This document shows, one piece after another, positions 5,935 through 21,810 of a DNA stretch of 21,810 bases. Within the stretch, counting starts at the first letter, position 1. Each line of letters begins with the position of its first letter. The stretch is from a virus. Made by a program: the position numbers and the translations under genes. Location of the stretch: positions 1 to 21,810 of the IMG/VR virus record IMGVR_UViG_3300046517_002942, one strand, 5' to 3'. The notes beneath the pieces are model-generated. The model ran no database searches. It had not been told where the DNA came from and saw only the letters and a list, made by a program, of their open reading frames with translations.

Positions 5935-7565
5935 CTAACAGCTCCCGCAAAATTCCTTGTCAAATCTGCATTTAATCTGCTTTGTTCTTTGTAAATGGCC
6001 TTCGCTGTCTCTTGGGGCGAATTAGAACCGTTAACAGTTATTTTTACATCTTGATTCACAGATTGATTTACAGAGGATGAAGATCCACCTTGCAGCAAAG
6101 GTGTGCTTCCGAAGCTAGTCAATCTTCTTGTTGATCCGGCAAAAGCATCCCTGGAAATCTTTGCTGCACCTGTGTCATCTACATCGAATTTTATCTTTAC
6201 ATTGTCTACAACCCTACTTATTACATCACCCAATTTTTGAAAACCTGCAGTCATCCATGTAAAAAATGGTGCGAACCAATCTTTTACTTTTTGCCAATTT
6301 TTTATAAGAAAATAAGCTGCGGTTGATAAGGCGGCAACGGCTGCTACCCAAAGACCAATTGGATTTGCAAGTAACATCACTATGCGAAAAGCTGCCATTG
6401 CTCTGGTTGCTAAAACAATGGCTGATTTAAATGTGGCAACCGCCGCTGCTGCCGCGAGAATTCCAACACGAAATGCGACAATAGAAATTCCCAACGCTAA
6501 CAAAACCTTATTAAAACCCCAACCCCAGTTGATTGCGGATTTCAACCCTTCATTGTAACCTTGAAAATCATCGATCAATAGCGCTAGTACTAACCCAAGT
6601 AAGATTAAACGACCTACGGGTGATGCAAGAAAAACTGCGTTCAGGATTTTCCATGCAGCAACGGCCGCAAGAATATACCCAGCCCATCCACTTGTTGCCT
6701 CATTAATTTTTTGAAAAATGTCAATTAAATTTTTTGACCACTCAATAACTCTTTTTGCTAATGTGAAAAAAGCTTCCGTCAAAGTAAGCAATATTTTTAA
6801 AATAGGAGTTATTGTTTGAATTATTTTTTTTGAATTTTCGATCATCAATTTTCGCAGTGTCTCTATTCCTTCCTTCAATTCAGGAATAAATTGTAGTGCG
6901 ATAGATTGTTTTAATGTGTTAAAAACAAATGACAATTTGTGGATTGAATCAATAAACTCTGCTGAAGATTTACCGGCAGCTTCCGAATTTAACCCAACAT
7001 CAGAATATAACCGATTAAATTCGTTTCGTATTTCGCTCACGTCATGAGTTAATGATGCTGCCAAACTAGAATCAATCCCTAGTCGTGAAAGTATGGCGTT
7101 TTTTTCGCTGGCAGAAACATTTTTTATTCTTTTACCAATTTCCCCCAAAATTTCTTCTGTTGTTTTCAAGTCTCCATTCTGTTTCTTTGCACTTAGACCT
7201 AAGGCTTTGAAAGTTGCCGCTCCCCGTCCAAGACCTACGGACGCTTCACCAAGGATTCGACTTAAATTGTGTAAAGATGAATTTGCTGCATCAACACTAC
7301 TTCCTGTCAGAGATGCAATATATCCAAATTCTTGAATAGTTTTTATGGGTACATTGATTTGTTTTGATAGATCATGAAGTCTGTTGAAATTGCTTGCGAC
7401 ACTGGCTACAAATCCTGTTGTGATCGCTTTGACAGCAACTAAAGCTGCACCAATTTTCAGAACAGCTTTAGTTGCATTTTGAATATCGGATTTAAATTTG
7501 TTTAGACCTGCCGCGTCTGTTCTAAACCCAAGGGAGACTAGAAATTCTTTTATTGTTTCAGCCAT
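5931..7565 (-). CDS. Tail tape measure protein
   Basis: This 544-aa protein sets tail length and probably helps DNA leave the virion. Residues 1-60 are the Mu-type start (FLVSLGFRTDAAGLNKFKSD then a hydrophobic helix). Residues about 75-240 are largely helical. Residues about 294-335 and 354-421 contain long hydrophobic stretches (YILAAVAAWKILNAVFLAS, VAAVAALSTAAYFLI) that could cross the host inner membrane. The C-terminus (about 497-544) has the family's end, VKITVNGSNSPQETAKAIYK. It is short for a tape measure. At about 1.5 angstroms per residue, the general rule, the tail would be roughly 80 nm. A GAGGTG Shine-Dalgarno lies just before the ATG, inside the frameshift extension of the chaperone gene. 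Confidence 0.93.
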   Translation of the reverse strand: MAETIKEFLVSLGFRTDAAGLNKFKSDIQNATKAVLKIGAALVAVKAITTGFVASVASNFNRLHDLSKQINVPIKTIQEFGYIASLTGSSVDAANSSLHNLSRILGEASVGLGRGAATFKALGLSAKKQNGDLKTTEEILGEIGKRIKNVSASEKNAILSRLGIDSSLAASLTHDVSEIRNEFNRLYSDVGLNSEAAGKSSAEFIDSIHKLSFVFNTLKQSIALQFIPELKEGIETLRKLMIENSKKIIQTITPILKILLTLTEAFFTLAKRVIEWSKNLIDIFQKINEATSGWAGYILAAVAAWKILNAVFLASPVGRLILLGLVLALLIDDFQGYNEGLKSAINWGWGFNKVLLALGISIVAFRVGILAAAAAVATFKSAIVLATRAMAAFRIVMLLANPIGLWVAAVAALSTAAYFLIKNWQKVKDWFAPFFTWMTAGFQKLGDVISRVVDNVKIKFDVDDTGAAKISRDAFAGSTRRLTSFGSTPLLQGGSSSSVNQSVNQDVKITVNGSNSPQETAKAIYKEQSRLNADLTRNFAGAVR

Positions 7566-7782
7566 TTTTCACCTCGGAATATCTTCGCTCGTTCTCCTCC
7601 ATAACATCAAGCGCGTCATTCATCAAAGCAAAATCAGCGAGTGATAGTTTTCCATCGATCAAACTTTCATAGCGACATAGACCCTTTATTATAGGCCTCA
7701 TCAACCAGTCTTCATCATTAGGTAAAGAAACCAGCTTTATATTTGTCGTTATTTCTTTTCGGGAAAATTCGACTGGAGATCT
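7558..7782 (-). CDS. Minus-one frameshift extension of the tail assembly chaperone (E'-like)
   Basis: In the -1 frame relative to the chaperone gene, 74 codons are open from 7782 to the TGA at 7558-7560. They have no plausible ribosome site of their own near the 5' end. The encoded segment contains WLMRPIIKGLCRYESLIDG, then LSLADFALMNDALDV and EENE, the pattern of the C-terminal domain of frameshifted tail chaperones in related myophages. The stop overlaps the first codons of the tape-measure gene by 8 bases. The complete long form would run 8159-7782, slip, and continue 7782-7558, giving 200 aa. As in P2 E/E' and lambda G/GT, the long form should be the minor product and should bring the tape measure to the tube subunits. 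Confidence 0.85.
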   Translation of the reverse strand, partial: RSPVEFSRKEITTNIKLVSLPNDEDWLMRPIIKGLCRYESLIDGKLSLADFALMNDALDVMEENERRYSEVKNG

Positions 7783-16014: not shown

Positions 16015-17479
16015 CAAAAAATTCCTTGATTCTGTTTCCTAGAGAGACTCTCGGCGCACGCGCTTCTGGGATTCTTTGTTGAGGAGGCTCAGGTGTTACG
16101 GACTCACGCGGGCTGTAAGCAGGCGGCTCTGTGATTTGTGATTCTTGTATATCTTTCTCATCTATATTGGTGTATATACCCGTTTCATTTGATGATTGTT
16201 TGAGTTCTTTTAATGCTGTTTCGTGGCTAATGATTCCTTTCTCATATAACATCGCGATGTTCACGGCGATTAGTTCTGAAATCTGAGCCTTCTCTTTCGC
16301 TTCGGTCTGCCAAAGAGGTACAAACTCAAAATCCATACCTTTTGGTGCTTCTTCACCAAATTTTGACATGTGAAGAACTCTCAACACTTTTAGGATGCCT
16401 TCCGATAGACCGCAGCTCTCTTGCTTTGCCCGCACCTTGTCGTAGTACATCCGCAAGTCACTCTCACCAGAGGAAAATCCTGATGGCGACTGGCCGAAGA
16501 GACGTACCATGGTCGAGTCGAGTGATGCCGCGATCTGCTGCCCGAACTGCCACATCACATCGGAAATTCCCGCGAAAGAGTAGCTATGCGTCGTCAGTGT
16601 GTCTAAAGAGTCGATGAGAGACATGCCTACTGCACTTTGCATCATACCCATCGTCATAAAGGACTTGAGCAGGTTCTCCTCTGCAACCCCACCCGCAGCC
16701 AAAACCTCCCGCATGCCATTTACACTTACGGTCTGAAGGTGAGCTTTTTGGATTAAATTCGCTGTTCCAAAGGTCACCGTGTCATATGGCAAGATACGAT
16801 CGTAAATCCTTTCGATCACAGATTCTCCCCACAGCTGCTCTGTAATTGCTTGAAAATGTGGCAGTTTTATTCCGATAAATCTGATTACACGAGAATGGTG
16901 ATAGGTGATGGAGGCGCGGCGGCCGTTGCTCATGTCAGCAAGCACGGTGTAGAAAGCTGGAAGCCCCGCTTCTTTTCCCGTCTCGATGAGGAGTTGTATG
17001 TCGGTGTTTAATTGCCATCTATTAAAAACCAAAAGCCCTTTAAATTGATCCTTTCCAACTCTAGAAACGTCAAGCGGCGATGAAGGATCTTGTCCATCGA
17101 TGTCTATGACAGCTAGCGCGCCGCCATAAAGTCTTCCCCACTTTATGGCATTCTGAAGTTCCTGCCAAATCCCCATCCGATTGAAAGAGGATAAAATTTC
17201 TTGCTCTCTCAAAGGGTCTGAATCCGATTTTATAGTTATGCCTTCACGCACCATGTCTTCAGCATACGAATCGATTGCAGCACCCACTATCCAACTGCCG
17301 CGGTACATCCGTTCTAATTTCAATCTATCGCGGGTCACATAATTAAAATCATAATCCCCTGCGCTTAGGATATTTTTGGTTTCTCGGTTTACACCCAACT
17401 GCGCGGCAAAATTTGTGTAACCATCTGTGAAACGTGTCTCGGTAACTTTTGGTTTTTTGCTCTTTAAATTTTTTGTCAT
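16007..17479 (-). CDS. Portal protein (DUF1073 family)
   Basis: This is a 490-aa portal, the dodecameric ring through which DNA enters and leaves the head. Signatures are RDRLKLERMYRGSWIVGAAI at about residues 50-69, YAEDMVREGI just after, WGRLYGGALAVIDIDGQD at about 112-129, FNRWQLNTD, and HHSRVIRFIGIKLPH at about 195-209. The chosen ATG (17477-17479) overlaps the terminase stop as ATGA, the junction used repeatedly in this operon; an in-frame ATG at 17494 would add MGKYF but has no ribosome site. The C-terminal 60 residues are a proline-rich tail (EPPAYSPRESVTPEPPQQR) and carry no Acb1 anti-CBASS domain, although some DUF1073 proteins are fused to one. Confidence 0.9.
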   Translation of the reverse strand: MTKNLKSKKPKVTETRFTDGYTNFAAQLGVNRETKNILSAGDYDFNYVTRDRLKLERMYRGSWIVGAAIDSYAEDMVREGITIKSDSDPLREQEILSSFNRMGIWQELQNAIKWGRLYGGALAVIDIDGQDPSSPLDVSRVGKDQFKGLLVFNRWQLNTDIQLLIETGKEAGLPAFYTVLADMSNGRRASITYHHSRVIRFIGIKLPHFQAITEQLWGESVIERIYDRILPYDTVTFGTANLIQKAHLQTVSVNGMREVLAAGGVAEENLLKSFMTMGMMQSAVGMSLIDSLDTLTTHSYSFAGISDVMWQFGQQIAASLDSTMVRLFGQSPSGFSSGESDLRMYYDKVRAKQESCGLSEGILKVLRVLHMSKFGEEAPKGMDFEFVPLWQTEAKEKAQISELIAVNIAMLYEKGIISHETALKELKQSSNETGIYTNIDEKDIQESQITEPPAYSPRESVTPEPPQQRIPEARAPRVSLGNRIKEFFGG

Positions 17480-18924
17480 AAAATATTTTCCCATTGCAGC
17501 GTGACGTTTCTCGCCAACATATTTGATATGGCGTCTAGCATCGGGTCGATCTGGTCGTCATGCTTATGGCCACCATCAGGAGAAAATTCCTCACACTCAC
17601 GGATGAAGTCTGACACGAAAGGAGCATTTTTAGGTAGCATGACATATCCTGACTCTATGTACCCTAAGACGTCAAGCACTCTCGTGTACTTGTCGATATG
17701 TCTTTCGATGGGAAAGACTGGCATATGATGCTTTGTCCTTAGCTCTTGGATCAGGCCTGTACCTGAAGCTTTATCTTCGACGAAAGTTTTACGAAGCTGA
17801 CCTACATATGATCGATTCTGTTCCACATGCTTGTTCCAAAAATCAATTGCTCTCCGTTTTAGCTCAGGTGATTCCCATTTACCCCTAATTTGGTCAACCA
17901 AGTATACTTTCCCGTCTGTTCCGAGACCCCAAATTTGGAACACTGAGTAATCGTTACTTTCCTTAGTTTTTAGAGCTGTATCTGCGTAAATCTCTCTGTA
18001 TTTCAAAACAGGGAGAATATCATATCGCCCAAAGTACTCCCCACGGATCAGGTTGCCACCGACAGCTGTCGGTCTTCCTTGGTACAAAGATTCCCACTCG
18101 TGGGTAGGCATTATTTTTTTTCTCTCCAACAGAAAATCTATTGATTTCAGTTGGGGGAAAAGAGCGTCGCCTATGTCTCTGTGTTTTTCTTTTTGCTCTG
18201 ATATAGCGTCATATGAGATGATTTTTATATCATCACCAAAATTTTCAAACATCCTCCCTAGAGGATCATCGATATGCCATCGCGTCGCTATGGTGAGAAA
18301 AGCTGCGTTTTCACTAAAACGGGAAAAGAAGTCACTGGTAAACCACTCCCAGGTCGCGTCACGCGTCACCAGGGAGTTTGCATCCTTGCGTCCTTTGATT
18401 GGGTCGTCCAACACCCCGATGTCCAGCCCTTCCCCCGTTATTGACCCTCTCACGGTGGTATTCCTAAAGTATCCTGCGGTCGAATCGAACTCGATGATCT
18501 CGCGCGTCTTGGTTGGGGCGCTATCTCGTAAGTTCTTTCCAGTCTCGTTGACCACTAGATCGGGAAAAATTTTTTTATAGATCTTGCTGGTAAAGATTCT
18601 TTGGCAAGCCAGATTGGCGCGTGTACCTAGCTTCTTGCTGTAAGACGCATAGATGGTGCGTAGGGAAGGGTTTTTTCCTGATATCCATGTGATGAGCTCG
18701 ATCGCCATCGTCGACTTTCCGTGTTGGGGCGGTGCTGATATCGCTAGTTTCGGCCGTCTACCTTTCTCCATGTCTTCGTAAAAGCCTTGGAGTTCGTCTG
18801 ACATCTCCTTTTGCCACCAGCCTAGCAGCATGTCTTTCGTGATCGCTTGGCGGTATACCCAGAAGCTTTCTCGTGCTTTTTGGATCCAAAGTTGCTCGTA
18901 AAGGTCAAGATCATCAAGCGTCAT
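17476..18924 (-). CDS. terL: Terminase large subunit
   Basis: This 482-aa protein is the packaging motor and nuclease. The ATPase half has Walker A APPQHGKS at residues 64-71, a Walker B-like strand IGVLDDP at 169-175, and the ATRWHIDDPLG motif at 214-223. The RNase H-like nuclease half has acidic residues at D315 (EIYADTALK), E383/D384 (FVEDKASGTG) and D456/D457 (HKHDDQIDPM), so both activities look intact. It couples ATP hydrolysis to DNA entry through the portal encoded just downstream and cuts the DNA concatemer. An AAAGGAAAAG site precedes the ATG. The start lies 11 bases inside the small subunit gene. Length is normal for the family. Confidence 0.95.
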   Translation of the reverse strand: MTLDDLDLYEQLWIQKARESFWVYRQAITKDMLLGWWQKEMSDELQGFYEDMEKGRRPKLAISAPPQHGKSTMAIELITWISGKNPSLRTIYASYSKKLGTRANLACQRIFTSKIYKKIFPDLVVNETGKNLRDSAPTKTREIIEFDSTAGYFRNTTVRGSITGEGLDIGVLDDPIKGRKDANSLVTRDATWEWFTSDFFSRFSENAAFLTIATRWHIDDPLGRMFENFGDDIKIISYDAISEQKEKHRDIGDALFPQLKSIDFLLERKKIMPTHEWESLYQGRPTAVGGNLIRGEYFGRYDILPVLKYREIYADTALKTKESNDYSVFQIWGLGTDGKVYLVDQIRGKWESPELKRRAIDFWNKHVEQNRSYVGQLRKTFVEDKASGTGLIQELRTKHHMPVFPIERHIDKYTRVLDVLGYIESGYVMLPKNAPFVSDFIRECEEFSPDGGHKHDDQIDPMLDAISNMLARNVTLQWENIL

Positions 18925-19375
18925 CTTTTCCTTTCACCGTGAAAGTTTTTGGGAGTCCTCTTGCTTCTAACTCCTTTTCAAGCTCTTCGGTACTCAACTC
19001 TTTTTTTCTGTCAGTCACTTGAAGCGTGATGTGCGAGGGCTCCGCCGCGGCTTTTTTTGCAATCACATAATCCAAAAAATCACAATTTCCTTTGCTCATC
19101 AAATTCAATGCAAGTTTAAGCGCTCCTCTCTCTAAAACGGTGCTATTCGGGTTTGTCGCAAAGCTTTTTGCCTCTTCGATAGTCATCGAACATATCTTTG
19201 CGAAAAGTGTTTTTATGTCTTGCTTTTCATATCCTTCGATCCCTAGAGAATTTATAAGTTTTCGTGGCCTCCCTTTTGGATTTCCACTTTGCCCTTTCAC
19301 AAAGGGGTGAAGTGTGCCGCCGCGGCCTCCAGGAATTGACGGTCGATCTAGCGCAATTTTTCTTTCTTTTTTCAT
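18914..19375 (-). CDS. Putative terminase small subunit (DUF5681 domain)
   Basis: This is a 153-aa protein with the DUF5681 signature FVKGQSGNPKGRPRKL at residues 25-40, found in proteins encoded next to large terminases. The middle is helical (LGIEGYEKQDIKTLFAKICS and LERGALKLALNLM). The end is acidic-basic (KKELSTEELEKELEARG). It should recognise the packaging site and load the large subunit, whose gene overlaps it by 11 bases. Its start overlaps the upstream stop as ATGA (19372-19375). The basic N-terminal patch could bind DNA. Role is inferred from location plus the domain; direct terminase activity cannot be read from the sequence. Confidence 0.83.
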   Translation of the reverse strand: MKKERKIALDRPSIPGGRGGTLHPFVKGQSGNPKGRPRKLINSLGIEGYEKQDIKTLFAKICSMTIEEAKSFATNPNSTVLERGALKLALNLMSKGNCDFLDYVIAKKAAAEPSHITLQVTDRKKELSTEELEKELEARGLPKTFTVKGKDDA

Positions 19376-19590
19376 TTTATCTCTGTTTTTTTGAGTTGAT
19401 CGTTGAATTTTTCTGTGAATGACGCATTTTTTAACCGATTTTCGATAATTTTAGTTATCCAAGTTGTAAAAATCACTCCATCTTTCTTGCTAGCATCTTT
19501 CCACCGCGTTTTTTGATCGCATGTGATCCTCATGTGCAGGTAAGCCTCCTTTTTCTCTTTCCCTGATTTTTTTGGTTCATCATTTTGCAT
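19372..19590 (-). CDS. Ribbon-helix-helix DNA-binding protein, first gene of the structural operon
   Basis: This 72-aa basic protein reads as an Arc/MetJ-type ribbon-helix-helix: a strand LHMRITCD at residues 18-25, helix 1 about 25-36 (QKTRWKDASKKD), a turn, and helix 2 about 41-53 (FTTWITKIIENRL). Such proteins dimerise and insert the paired strands into the DNA major groove. It is the promoter-proximal gene of the packaging and virion operon and lies beside the control region with its many short repeats, so autoregulation or a role at the packaging or replication site is plausible. A GGTGGG ribosome site precedes the ATG. The fold is supported by pattern; the target is unknown. Confidence 0.75.
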   Translation of the reverse strand: MQNDEPKKSGKEKKEAYLHMRITCDQKTRWKDASKKDGVIFTTWITKIIENRLKNASFTEKFNDQLKKTEIK

Positions 19591-19616
19591 GTTCCCACCA
19601 CCAACCCCGTTTTTTG

Positions 19617-19645
19617 ATATTGCCTAATCTGGGTGATTTTGTCAA
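19617..19645 (-). promoter_or_regulatory. Candidate sigma70 promoter for the structural operon
   Basis: On the minus strand a perfect -35 TTGACA (19640-19645) is followed after 17 bases by CAATAT (19617-19622) as a weak -10. Transcription would start near 19610, about 20 bases before the ribbon-helix-helix ATG. This is the only such match seen before the 19.6-kb operon. The poor -10 suggests that an activator may be needed. Confidence 0.5.
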
Positions 19646-19801
19646 CACAAAACGTCTTGAAAATGTATAATCATATTTTAACAAGTTTGATCTTAAAAAT
19701 ATCATTTCGAGTTTATAATACTTTTCAAACCGTTTATTTTAACTTTATGATCTTTTTTGTAACTTTTGTCCCACCTTTTTTTGCCTTTGTACGGCCCTAG
19801 G

Positions 19802-19836
19802 ACGAAAAATCCCCTTTAAAATCAAAGTGCGTACTG
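19802..19836 (+). repeat. Left arm of composite inverted repeat
   Basis: A 24-base block (19802-19825), five unmatched bases, then GTACTG (19831-19836). The right arm at 19971-20005 repeats this layout in inverted order with the same 5-base spacer and one mismatch in the 24-base block, so 29 of 30 specified positions match. Confidence 0.9.
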
Positions 19837-19876
19837 GTTTCCTGGCTCGTACTGCGAATGGCAAGACTACATAACC

Positions 19877-19970
19877 TAAATGAATATATATAAATATAAT
19901 ATATACTAACCCCTATTATTATATATAATAATAATAATAATATTATAATATACAGTATAGATAGTATATA
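19877..19970. other. AT-rich core with 20-bp palindrome
   Basis: Almost pure A/T, including a run of TAA/ATA triplets at 19920-19950. Bases 19914-19933 form a perfect 20-bp palindrome (TATTATTATA and its complement), and 19940-19951 form a 12-bp one. The segment lies between the inverted-repeat arms and would melt easily, as in a DNA unwinding element. Confidence 0.75.
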
Positions 19971-20005
19971 CAGTACCGCTATTGATTTTAAAGGAGATTT
20001 TTCGT
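19971..20005 (-). repeat. Right arm of composite inverted repeat
   Basis: CAGTAC (19971-19976), five unmatched bases, then the 24-base block (19982-20005) with core GATTTTAAAGGAGATTTT. The AAAGGAG inside it looks like a ribosome site but no start codon follows at a useful distance. Confidence 0.9.
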
Positions 20006-20056
20006 ACTGAGTCTAAAAAAGCGGCCAGTACAGCCAGTACAGAGGCTAAAAAAAGC

Positions 20057-20084
20057 TTGATTTCTGATCCACTTGTGATAGAAT
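20057..20084 (+). promoter_or_regulatory. Candidate extended -10 promoter for the replication genes
   Basis: TTGATT (20057-20062), a 16-base spacer, then TAGAAT (20079-20084) preceded directly by TGA, giving an extended -10 TGATAGAAT. The start of transcription would be near 20091, leaving about 55 bases before the ATG at 20147. The tandem CAGTAC pair ends 14 bases before the -35. Confidence 0.55.
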
Positions 20085-20146
20085 ATTTCTGTCTCGAAAG
20101 AGGCGAAAAACACAACCACAAAACTAATCTAAAGAGGATCAAAAAA

Positions 20147-20575: not shown

Positions 20576-21810
20576 ATGCTACAAAAAGCTTTGCATTATG
20601 CTGCCCGCGGTTGGGCAGTTTTCCCTGTGCACTCTATAGACCTAGACTTAGCGTGCACATGCGGCAAAATAGATTGCGGGGCGGCGGGGAAACATCCCGC
20701 TACCCGTTCGGGATTAAAAGACGCCACTAAAGATCCTGTGCAGATAGAAAAGTGGTTTACCGACAGCATCTACAATATCGCGATAGCGACTGGAGAGATC
20801 TCCGATCTTACGATCATCGACATCGACATAGCCGATGGCAAGAAGGGTGCCGAGACGTGGCAGAAGCTTATCGAGACGCATGGTGAGCCTACTACGCTCA
20901 TGTCGCGCACAGGCTCGGGAGGTATGCACCTCTTCTTCAAGTACAACTCTGCCCTAAAGACATCGGCGGGAGTGCTTGGTGAAGGGATAGACGTGCGTAA
21001 CGCCGGCGGTTTTATAGTAGCTCCTCCCTCTCGTCATAAGACGGGCGCTTTTTATGAGTGGATAGACCAGTCCGTACAGATATCTTCCCTTCCACACTAC
21101 CTCACCAAGAAAGTCAAAAAGACTACTCGCCGCAAGACCTCTCTCTTCTCTTCAAAGTACACGCTTAAGAATGTCGCCAGCATGCTTGATGTGATCGTGC
21201 CGGATTCCCGAGATTTTCGGCGTGCTGTGGGCATTATTTTGGGTCGAGAGTACGACAGAAGTGATGAAGCGTGGGAAGTCTACGTGTCTTGGTCTGAAAG
21301 AAGGCCGAGCAAGACATCCCGCGCTGCTCGTGAGATAGGTATGCGCGAAAGCTTCTATGAGATCTCGCAGCTAAAGTCTGACTCAGAGCTCACAGTGGCC
21401 ACGATCATAGCCGAGGCCGTCAAGATGGGGTGGGCACCGATTTTTGGGAGTGTTCCACGTGAAAACTTTGTCTTCTTCGCACCTAGCAATGTCTTTCTCT
21501 ACCGCCCTACCCTCTCGGAGTGGGGCGCCACTTCTGTAGACGCGGCCGTTTCCCCTATAAATGAGCAGGGAAAGATCATTAAAGCTACCGAATGGCTCAA
21601 GAAGAACCAGTTGTGCACGTCCATGACATGCGATCCACTTCTTGACGATGACTATATCCCTGGCTACGACTGCAGGGATGGGGAGATCGTGCGTATAGAG
21701 GGCGCTGCGCTTTTTAATGCATTCCGCCGCGCTACCATCGAGATGGGTGACCCTAACCTCGCGCAGCCCTTCTTGGAGCACGTCTATAACGTCTTCCCGC
21801 GCGCTGGCGA
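20576..21810 (+). CDS. Primase-polymerase with N-terminal part of a D5/VirE-like helicase, cut by the window edge
   Basis: The ATG at 20576 has an AAGGAG site 5 bases upstream and the frame stays open for 411 codons to the edge. Residues 1-165 are a bifunctional primase/polymerase domain: GWAVFPVHS at 12-20, the C.C....C...GKHP cluster (C27, C29, C34, H40), IDIDIADG with catalytic D82 and D84, SGGMHLFF with H118, and GIDVRNAGGFIVAPPS with D139. All three catalytic motifs are intact. Residues about 338-411 (ATEWLKKNQLC, MTCDP, AALFNAFR, FLEHVYNVFP) resemble the segment just before the SF3/D5 helicase of phage primase-helicases, so an ATPase should follow beyond the window. It would synthesise primers and unwind phage DNA. 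The gene is GC-richer than its neighbours. Confidence 0.92.
   Translation, partial: MLQKALHYAARGWAVFPVHSIDLDLACTCGKIDCGAAGKHPATRSGLKDATKDPVQIEKWFTDSIYNIAIATGEISDLTIIDIDIADGKKGAETWQKLIETHGEPTTLMSRTGSGGMHLFFKYNSALKTSAGVLGEGIDVRNAGGFIVAPPSRHKTGAFYEWIDQSVQISSLPHYLTKKVKKTTRRKTSLFSSKYTLKNVASMLDVIVPDSRDFRRAVGIILGREYDRSDEAWEVYVSWSERRPSKTSRAAREIGMRESFYEISQLKSDSELTVATIIAEAVKMGWAPIFGSVPRENFVFFAPSNVFLYRPTLSEWGATSVDAAVSPINEQGKIIKATEWLKKNQLCTSMTCDPLLDDDYIPGYDCRDGEIVRIEGAALFNAFRRATIEMGDPNLAQPFLEHVYNVFPRAG

What the first reader, a model, noticed from the sequence alone, without database searches (positions are those of the whole stretch)
19802..20005. Composite inverted repeat around an AT-rich core between divergent operons
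Two 35-base arms have the same layout in mirror image: a 24-base block with one mismatch, a 5-base unmatched spacer, then GTACTG. Matching spacer length without matching spacer sequence suggests two separate proteins, or two domains, bind each arm. The arms flank a nearly pure A/T segment with a 20-bp palindrome. The site lies between the replication module and the packaging genes, so it may be the replication origin, the terminase recognition site or a loop-forming operator. I know of no described element with this exact design.
Basis: partly seen in the sequence, partly recalled or inferred. Interest (0 to 1): 0.72.

Follow-up and report, generated by a model that had tools for sequence, protein, structure and literature searches.

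The report
Likely phage replication start site
A mirror-image DNA element next to the copying enzyme gene of an uncultured phage looks like the place where the virus starts copying its genome: short protein-docking repeats on both sides of the easiest-to-melt stretch of the sequence, a known kind of design in a new sequence.

Summary
In detail: arms 19802-19836 and 19971-20005 match at 29/35, with the 24 + 5 + 6 layout and the 20-bp palindrome as described, and this is the strongest inverted repeat in the window, beyond all shuffles. The element is larger than reported. It holds CAGTAC repeats at 9-bp or 18-bp spacing, facing each other across an A/T core, plus a second pair beside the rightward promoter. 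The core is the least stable 80 bp of the window. Two other contigs carry it. A 98.8%-identical one keeps the arms while the core diverges (81%). The rightward operon encodes a PrimPol replicase. Seven PrimPol-phage isolates have a long noncoding region upstream of PrimPol that holds the locus's lowest duplex stability (whole genome in five). A plasmid whose only recognisable replicase shares the DUF5906 domain has 9-bp inverted repeats around its least stable DNA. Best reading: an iteron-type replication origin. cos/pac or an operator remain possible. GC skew is uninformative, because it follows gene strand. Nothing is shown experimentally.

The parts
19802..19825 (+). left 24-bp outer block; conserved part is CTTTAAAATCAA (19814-19825)
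   Evidence: 23/24 match to 19982-20005; CTTTAAAATCAA identical in L006 and L007
19831..19836 (-). left iteron 1 (GTACTG on +), 5 nt from the outer block
   Evidence: identical in L006 and L007
19849..19854 (-). left iteron 2 (GTACTG), 18 bp from iteron 1, with a degenerate 9-bp step between
   Evidence: L007 has GTACTC at the same spacing
19855..19877 (+). asymmetric conserved block CGAATGGCAAGACTACATAACCT, no counterpart on the right
   Evidence: identical in L006; 21 of 23 columns identical in L007
19883..19952 (.). A/T core, proposed DNA unwinding element; 20-bp palindrome at 19914-19933
   Evidence: least stable 80 bp of the window starts at 19884, z -5.3; also the lowest in L006 and L007; 81% identical to L006 against 98-100% in flanking genes
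19953..19976 (+). three right iterons at 9-bp steps: CAGTAT 19953, TAGTAT 19962, CAGTAC 19971
   Evidence: L006 CAGTAT/CAGTAT/TAGTAC at the same 9-bp steps; L007 keeps the 18-bp pair
19982..20005 (-). right 24-bp outer block TTGATTTTAAAGGAGATTTTTCGT
   Evidence: TTGATTTTAAAG identical in L006 and L007
20004..20009 (-). GTACTG in TTTTTCGTACTG, overlapping the right arm end
   Evidence: TTTTTCGTACTG identical in L006 and L007
20026..20040 (+). promoter-proximal iteron pair CAGTACAGC-CAGTAC, 9-bp spacing
   Evidence: L007 has AGTACACTT-AGTAC at the same spacing
20057..20084 (+). predicted sigma-70-type promoter of the replication operon, TTGATT-16-TAGAAT with TG before the -10
   Evidence: consensus scan only; AAAAGCTTG..TT partly conserved in L007
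19617..19645 (-). possible leftward promoter TTGACA-17-CAATAT of the RHH/terS/terL operon
   Evidence: read from the sequence, not called by the scan; TTGACA also present upstream of the RHH gene in L007
20147..20566 (+). 139-aa protein of unknown function between element and PrimPol gene
   Evidence: no Pfam, PHROG or NCBIfam match; no relative found in viral contigs; fold model too poor to use, pLDDT 51
20576..21808 (+). PrimPol replicase, 3' end cut off by the contig end; proposed initiator and replicase
   Evidence: PF09250 E 2e-36; about 50% identical relatives L005, L144, L145 continue into PriCT_2 and the DUF5906 helicase domain
19372..19590 (-). 72-aa probable ribbon-helix-helix protein
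   Evidence: fold inferred by eye; weak hits to AcrIF25 and LmbU; 35% identical homologue in L007
18914..19375 (-). probable small terminase subunit (DUF5681)
   Evidence: gene position
17476..18924 (-). large terminase subunit
   Evidence: PF17289, PF03237, phrog_38

Best explanation
The element (about 19802-20040) is the origin of DNA replication of this tailed phage. Inferred mechanism: an initiator, most likely the C-terminal DUF5906-type helicase part of the PrimPol replicase encoded just to the right (the 139-aa protein being the alternative), binds the 9-bp-phased CAGTAC iterons. The two arrays face each other, so initiator complexes load in opposite orientation on either side of the A/T core. 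The core, the weakest duplex in the window, melts; the helicase moves outwards and the PrimPol domain makes the first DNA chains without a primer. The CTTTAAAATCAA blocks at fixed 5-nt distance would bind an accessory protein or a second domain of the initiator. The iteron pair at 20026/20035, just upstream of the operon's predicted promoter, would let the initiator control its own expression. Shown by computation: arms, iterons, phasing, A/T core, conservation, neighbouring genes. Inferred: protein binding, melting, origin function.
For: Inverted repeat and iterons far beyond chance. Core is the least stable duplex of the window and of both relatives. Arms and 9/18-bp iteron phase conserved in L006 and L007 while the core sequence diverges but stays A/T-rich, as expected for binding sites plus a melting segment. 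The next operon holds the 139-aa gene and a PrimPol replicase whose closest relatives carry DUF5906; one of these, L145, hits the solved NrS-1 helicase domain (E 4e-7). In seven isolated PrimPol phages (H40/1, C7, H188, 1.005.O, 1.030.O, VaS_L1, Sa179lw) a 460-1020-bp noncoding region upstream of the PrimPol gene or its operon holds the lowest 80-bp stability of the locus, 7/7; in the five complete or nearly complete genomes it is also the genome-wide minimum, 5/5. Short repeats in both orientations exceeded 60/60 shuffles in Sa179lw and VaS_L1 and 59/60 in C7. Plasmid pW47-1, whose only recognisable replication protein is a DUF5906 replicase, has, next to that gene, 9-bp iterons CGGTTACAA in both orientations around its least stable DNA. 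In SaPI and SCCmec, related D5-type helicases bind iterons beside their own gene (PMC7581432).
Against: No replication or binding data. Only three loci carry the element, and in L007 and L006 the replicase gene lies beyond the contig end, so linkage of element and PrimPol is seen in the window alone. The three ~50% PrimPol relatives (L005, L144, L145) do not share these iterons; L005 and L145 have no clear inverted iterons at the operon start. Repeat enrichment by the 8-mer test was not significant in H40/1, H188, 1.005.O and 1.030.O, nor for the window and L007 by that test, although the exact CAGTAC count in the window is. GC skew gives no independent support. SaPI and SCCmec origins lie downstream of the initiator gene, here upstream. 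A/T-rich stability minima can also be a promoter-region property. The isolates' PrimPols carry DUF3987 rather than DUF5906.
Confidence: 0.67

Rival explanations
1. It is the packaging start (cos or pac): the small terminase subunit or the RHH protein binds the arms and the large subunit cuts nearby.
For: It lies upstream of the RHH-terS-terL operon, where cos sites often lie, and the only relatives found (L006, L007) share precisely that operon.
Against: In related PrimPol phages the equivalent noncoding region stays beside the PrimPol operon while terminase genes are several genes away. The hypervariable A/T core and the iteron pair beside the PrimPol promoter have no obvious role in packaging. 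Terminase relatives at 30-41% identity showed no such element, with one possible analogue in L012.
Confidence: 0.14
2. It is a regulatory region between divergent operons: a repressor or activator (for example the RHH protein) binds the arms and loops the DNA, switching early and late transcription.
For: Divergent operons; a predicted promoter on the right; iteron pair just upstream of its -35; small probable DNA-binding protein encoded next door.
Against: The inter-arm distance is 167, 168 and 154 bp in the three loci, a change of 13-14 bp that does not keep helical phase. The likely DNA-contact residues of the RHH strand differ between window (YLHMRI) and L007 (WIQLRI), though CAGTAC does not. 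No CAGTAC site lies at the RHH gene's own likely promoter. A 70-bp meltable core is not needed for an operator. Dual origin/operator function is possible.
Confidence: 0.13
3. It is a phage attachment site (attP) with integrase arm-type sites around an A/T core.
For: Superficial layout: phased short sites flanking an A/T-rich core.
Against: The core, which must match the host site, is the most variable part between near-identical phages; no integrase was found among the window proteins examined.
Confidence: 0.02
4. The symmetry is incidental: remnants of duplicated promoter or terminator sequence with no common function.
For: Sequence is A/T-rich, where short palindromes are common.
Against: Beyond all shuffles and conserved across about 29% divergence.
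Confidence: 0.03

Closest known systems
SaPI and SCCmec replication origins (SaPI Rep; SCCmec Cch2), PMC7581432
   Same: Short direct repeats (iterons) in a noncoding region beside the gene of a self-loading D5-type initiator helicase, sometimes fused to a primase, bound specifically in vitro.
   Different: Origin lies downstream of the initiator gene there, upstream of the operon here; different repeat sequence; no binding shown here.
DUF5906-replicase plasmid pW47-1 (NZ_CP104987.1), noncoding region 6658-7727
   Same: 9-bp-period iterons in both orientations around the least stable DNA of the replicon, next to the gene of a replicase with the same DUF5906 domain.
   Different: Iteron CGGTTACAA instead of CAGTACnnn; Toprim-like rather than PrimPol primase part; region downstream of the gene; I know of no test of its origin.
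Nitratiruptor phage NrS-1 PrimPol and its priming site TTTGGTTA (PMC7102993, PMC8718748)
   Same: Self-priming PrimPol with a helicase ring; relative L145 hits the solved NrS-1 domain.
   Different: The NrS-1 site is an 8-nt priming site, two copies per genome, not an iteron array. TTTGGTTA was not seen in the element; the shorter core GGTTA occurs twice, but across related regions no oftener than I would estimate by chance.
Noncoding regions beside PrimPol in Pseudoalteromonas phages H40/1 and C7, Vibrio phages H188 and VaS_L1, Escherichia phage Sa179lw
   Same: Long noncoding region upstream of a PrimPol gene or its operon, divergent from the other operon, with the genome's lowest duplex stability and, in three, notable short repeats.
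   Different: Other repeat sequences; DUF3987 helicase domain; not proven origins.
PLE satellite origin with RepA_N iterons (PMC7145576)
   Same: Phage-related origin in a noncoding region with iterons and inverted sub-repeats, needed for replication.
   Different: RepA_N initiator not predicted to have helicase or primase activity; different layout.

Membership tests
Iteron-type replication origin | several copies of a short direct repeat at regular spacing | tested here: met
   six exact CAGTAC plus variants; same-strand neighbours within each array 9 or 18 bp apart in window, L006, L007
Iteron-type replication origin | adjacent A/T-rich DNA unwinding element | tested here: met
   least stable 80 bp of the window, z -5.3
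Iteron-type replication origin | cognate initiator gene close by | tested here: inconclusive
   PrimPol replicase gene begins 536 bp from the last iteron, but that it is the cognate binder is not shown
Iteron-type replication origin | iterons bound by the initiator; fragment replicates autonomously | not testable with these tools
   needs gel shift and replicon assay
Iteron-type replication origin | replication-driven GC-skew switch | tested here: inconclusive
   skew minimum lies in the equivalent region in 5/5 related genomes but its sign follows gene strand; the window is a fragment
DnaA-dependent origin | DnaA boxes TTATNCACA | tested here: not met
   none with up to one mismatch in 19591-20146
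SaPI/SCCmec-type origin | origin directly downstream of the D5-type initiator gene | tested here: not met
   element lies upstream of the operon; so it may work like one but is not filed as one
cos/pac site | virion DNA end or terminase cleavage at the site | not testable with these tools
   no reads available
cos/pac site | stays beside the terminase genes in relatives | tested here: inconclusive
   near terS in all three loci of the element, but in more distant PrimPol phages the equivalent region lies beside PrimPol and away from terS
tyrosine-integrase attP | invariant core shared with attB and an integrase gene | tested here: not met
   core is the most variable part; no integrase among the window proteins examined
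IHF-bent nucleoprotein site | WATCAANNNNTTR | tested here: not met
   no exact site in 19591-20146; two one-mismatch sites outside the arms

The most novel reading that the evidence does not exclude
Self-priming PrimPol replicases fused to DUF5906/DUF3987 helicases, in phages and small plasmids, share one origin architecture: facing arrays of short phased iterons (9 bp here and in pW47-1) read by the replicase itself and placed about its weakest DNA, so one protein would recognise, open, prime and copy. In this phage a second conserved 12-bp block sits at a fixed 5-nt distance on each arm.
Probability: 0.25. Interest if true: 0.6.

Novelty: new member of a known kind. Interest (0 to 1): 0.4.

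Why it matters
Where PrimPol phages begin replication is poorly known; for NrS-1 only an in-vitro priming site is proposed as origin. A defined, compact candidate origin with repeat sequence, phase and a probable initiator gives a direct test, and the comparison with related phages and a DUF5906 plasmid suggests a rule for finding such origins: look for phased facing repeats around the weakest DNA beside the PrimPol operon.

Tried and rejected
GC skew as origin evidence: rejected, sign follows gene strand. NrS-1-like GGTTA priming motif: two in the window, but not above what I estimate by chance across related regions. DnaA boxes and IHF sites: none. Rfam: no match. Pattern scans for the arm, the CTACATAACC block and the four-iteron layout found, beyond L006 and L007, only hits without the element; many look like coding sequence or tandem repeats. 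PrimPol searches gave L005, L144, L145: no shared iterons; L144 has TTTTAAG heptads facing each other but that may be low-complexity sequence. Inverted repeats upstream of other terminases: L012 and L019 high-scoring; L019 not followed up, L012 a possible analogue. 139-aa protein: no relatives, poor fold. Shewanella and Thermaerobacter PrimPol plasmids and the E. coli plasmid CP077066.1 were fetched but not analysed. attP and structured-RNA readings rejected.

Full report
OBSERVATION. The repeat is exactly as described: 29 of 35 positions match between 19802-19836 and the reverse complement of 19971-20005, split 23/24, 0/5, 6/6, with a perfect 20-bp palindrome at 19914-19933. It is the best inverted repeat of the whole window (score 25.5) against 15.5 elsewhere, 16.5 in the best of 15 whole-window shuffles and 15.0 in the best of 300 local shuffles.

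ANATOMY. GTACTG is one member of a repeat family. Six of the seven exact CAGTAC/GTACTG of the 21.8-kb window lie in 19831-20040; shuffles of 19780-20060 average 0.07. Same-strand neighbours within each array are 9 or 18 bp apart: 19831/19849 on the left, CAGTAT/TAGTAT/CAGTAC at 19953/19962/19971 on the right, 20026/20035 further right; one more, in the opposite orientation, is at 20004. Left and right arrays face each other. Between them lie an asymmetric conserved block (19855-19877) and the A/T core (19883-19952), the least stable 80 bp of the window by nearest-neighbour energy (z -5.3). The element lies between a possible leftward TTGACA promoter near 19617-19645 (read from sequence) and a predicted rightward promoter at 20057-20084.

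SURROUNDINGS. The window is a 21.8-kb IMG/VR record, a fragment. To the left run an RHH-like protein, a probable small and a large terminase subunit, portal and contractile-tail genes; to the right a 139-aa protein of unknown function and a PrimPol replicase cut by the contig end. PrimPol relatives at about 50% identity carry PriCT_2 and the DUF5906 helicase domain, and one hits the solved NrS-1 polymerase helicase domain (E 4e-7).

RELATIVES. Two contigs hold the element. L006 is 98.8% identical over 4.2 kb; genes are 97.7-100% identical, the left arm 100%, the right arm 90%, the A/T core only 81%. L007 is 71% identical; it keeps CCCTTTAAAATCAA-N5-GTACTGG, the asymmetric block, TTGATTTTAAAG, TTTTTCGTACTG and the AGTAC pair, and the 18- and 9-bp spacings. 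In L007 the spacers are TAGCT and CAGCT (4/5 matched), the symmetry extends inward (GGTATCT/AGATACC) and the outer half of the left arm is lost. The inter-arm distance is 167, 168 and 154 bp, a change not in whole helical turns, which speaks mildly against a looping operator. Three pattern scans of IMG/VR found no further copy (with 19, 28, 56).

COMPARISON ACROSS PRIMPOL PHAGES. The nearest isolates by PrimPol (22-33% identity) include Pseudoalteromonas phages H40/1 and C7, Vibrio phages H188, 1.005.O, 1.030.O, VaS_L1 and Escherichia phage Sa179lw. In these seven, a 460-1020-bp noncoding region lies upstream of the PrimPol gene or of the one or two small genes before it, divergent from the other operon. 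The lowest-stability 80 bp of the locus is in that region in 7/7, and of the whole genome in 5/5. Short repeats are beyond 60/60 shuffles in Sa179lw (CTATTTGC, facing) and VaS_L1 (TTGTGTGT), and 59/60 in C7 (GTGCAAAA); not significant in the others. Rhizobium and Micrococcus PrimPol phages do not show a divergent region at that place. In the phages with visible terminase genes these lie several genes from the region, so it goes with PrimPol rather than with packaging. Of the isolates scanned, the PrimPols carry DUF3987, not DUF5906.

PLASMID COMPARATOR. The 9-kb Proteus plasmid pW47-1 has one recognisable replication protein, with PriCT_2 and DUF5906 domains. The noncoding region next to it holds CGGTTACAA repeats at 9-bp spacing and their inverted copies around the least stable 80 bp of the plasmid (6792). 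This is the closest match to the design, from an element that must carry its own origin.

NEGATIVE RESULT. The cumulative GC-skew minimum (after detrending) lies in the PrimPol-side noncoding region in 5/5 related genomes, but genes running against their arm have the opposite skew (for example -0.14 against +0.11 in H40/1), so the skew reflects coding strand and is not evidence for an origin.

MECHANISM AND RIVALS. Best reading: a replication origin whose initiator is the PrimPol-helicase (or the 139-aa protein). Related D5-type helicases of SaPI and SCCmec bind iterons beside their genes (PMC7581432). Packaging site and operator remain possible; attP is unlikely, since the core varies most. 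The RHH protein is a poor candidate for the CAGTAC binder, since its likely contact strand differs between window and L007 while CAGTAC does not.

STATUS. Computation only. What is solid: the anatomy, its significance, its conservation and the stability minimum. What is inferred: binding partner, melting and origin function. Novelty: the architecture is known; the sequence, the conserved 12-bp block at fixed distance and the link to PrimPol are, as far as I could find, new. I file it as a new member of the iteron-type origins, pending a functional test.

Noticed in passing
L205 (pW47-1) 6719-6988: 9-bp CGGTTACAA iterons in both orientations around the plasmid's least stable DNA beside a DUF5906 replicase gene: a candidate plasmid origin that I have not seen described.
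   Followed up: partly
L197 (Escherichia phage Sa179lw) 4106-4767 and L196 (Vibrio phage VaS_L1) 3967-4985: Noncoding regions upstream of PrimPol rich in short repeats in both orientations (CTATTTGCC; TTGTGTGT), candidate origins of known isolates.
   Followed up: partly
window 19372-19590 (-): The 72-aa RHH-like protein matches the N-terminal part of the anti-CRISPR AcrIF25 (8jdh, E 3e-4).
   Followed up: no
L012 4162-4346: Perfect 17-bp inverted repeat around a stretch that includes the local A/T peak, upstream of a related terminase; possible analogue of the element.
   Followed up: no
L144 1832-1965: TTTTAAG heptad arrays facing each other upstream of a PrimPol operon; may be an origin or low-complexity sequence.
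   Followed up: no
L006 and L007: Both short contigs from different metagenomes end just right of the element (window about 20076 and about 20170) and at nearly the same place on the left; probably chance.
   Followed up: no
window 19855-19877: A 23-bp asymmetric block, CGAATnGCAAGnCTACATAACCT, is as well conserved in L007 as the arms and has no assigned role.
   Followed up: partly
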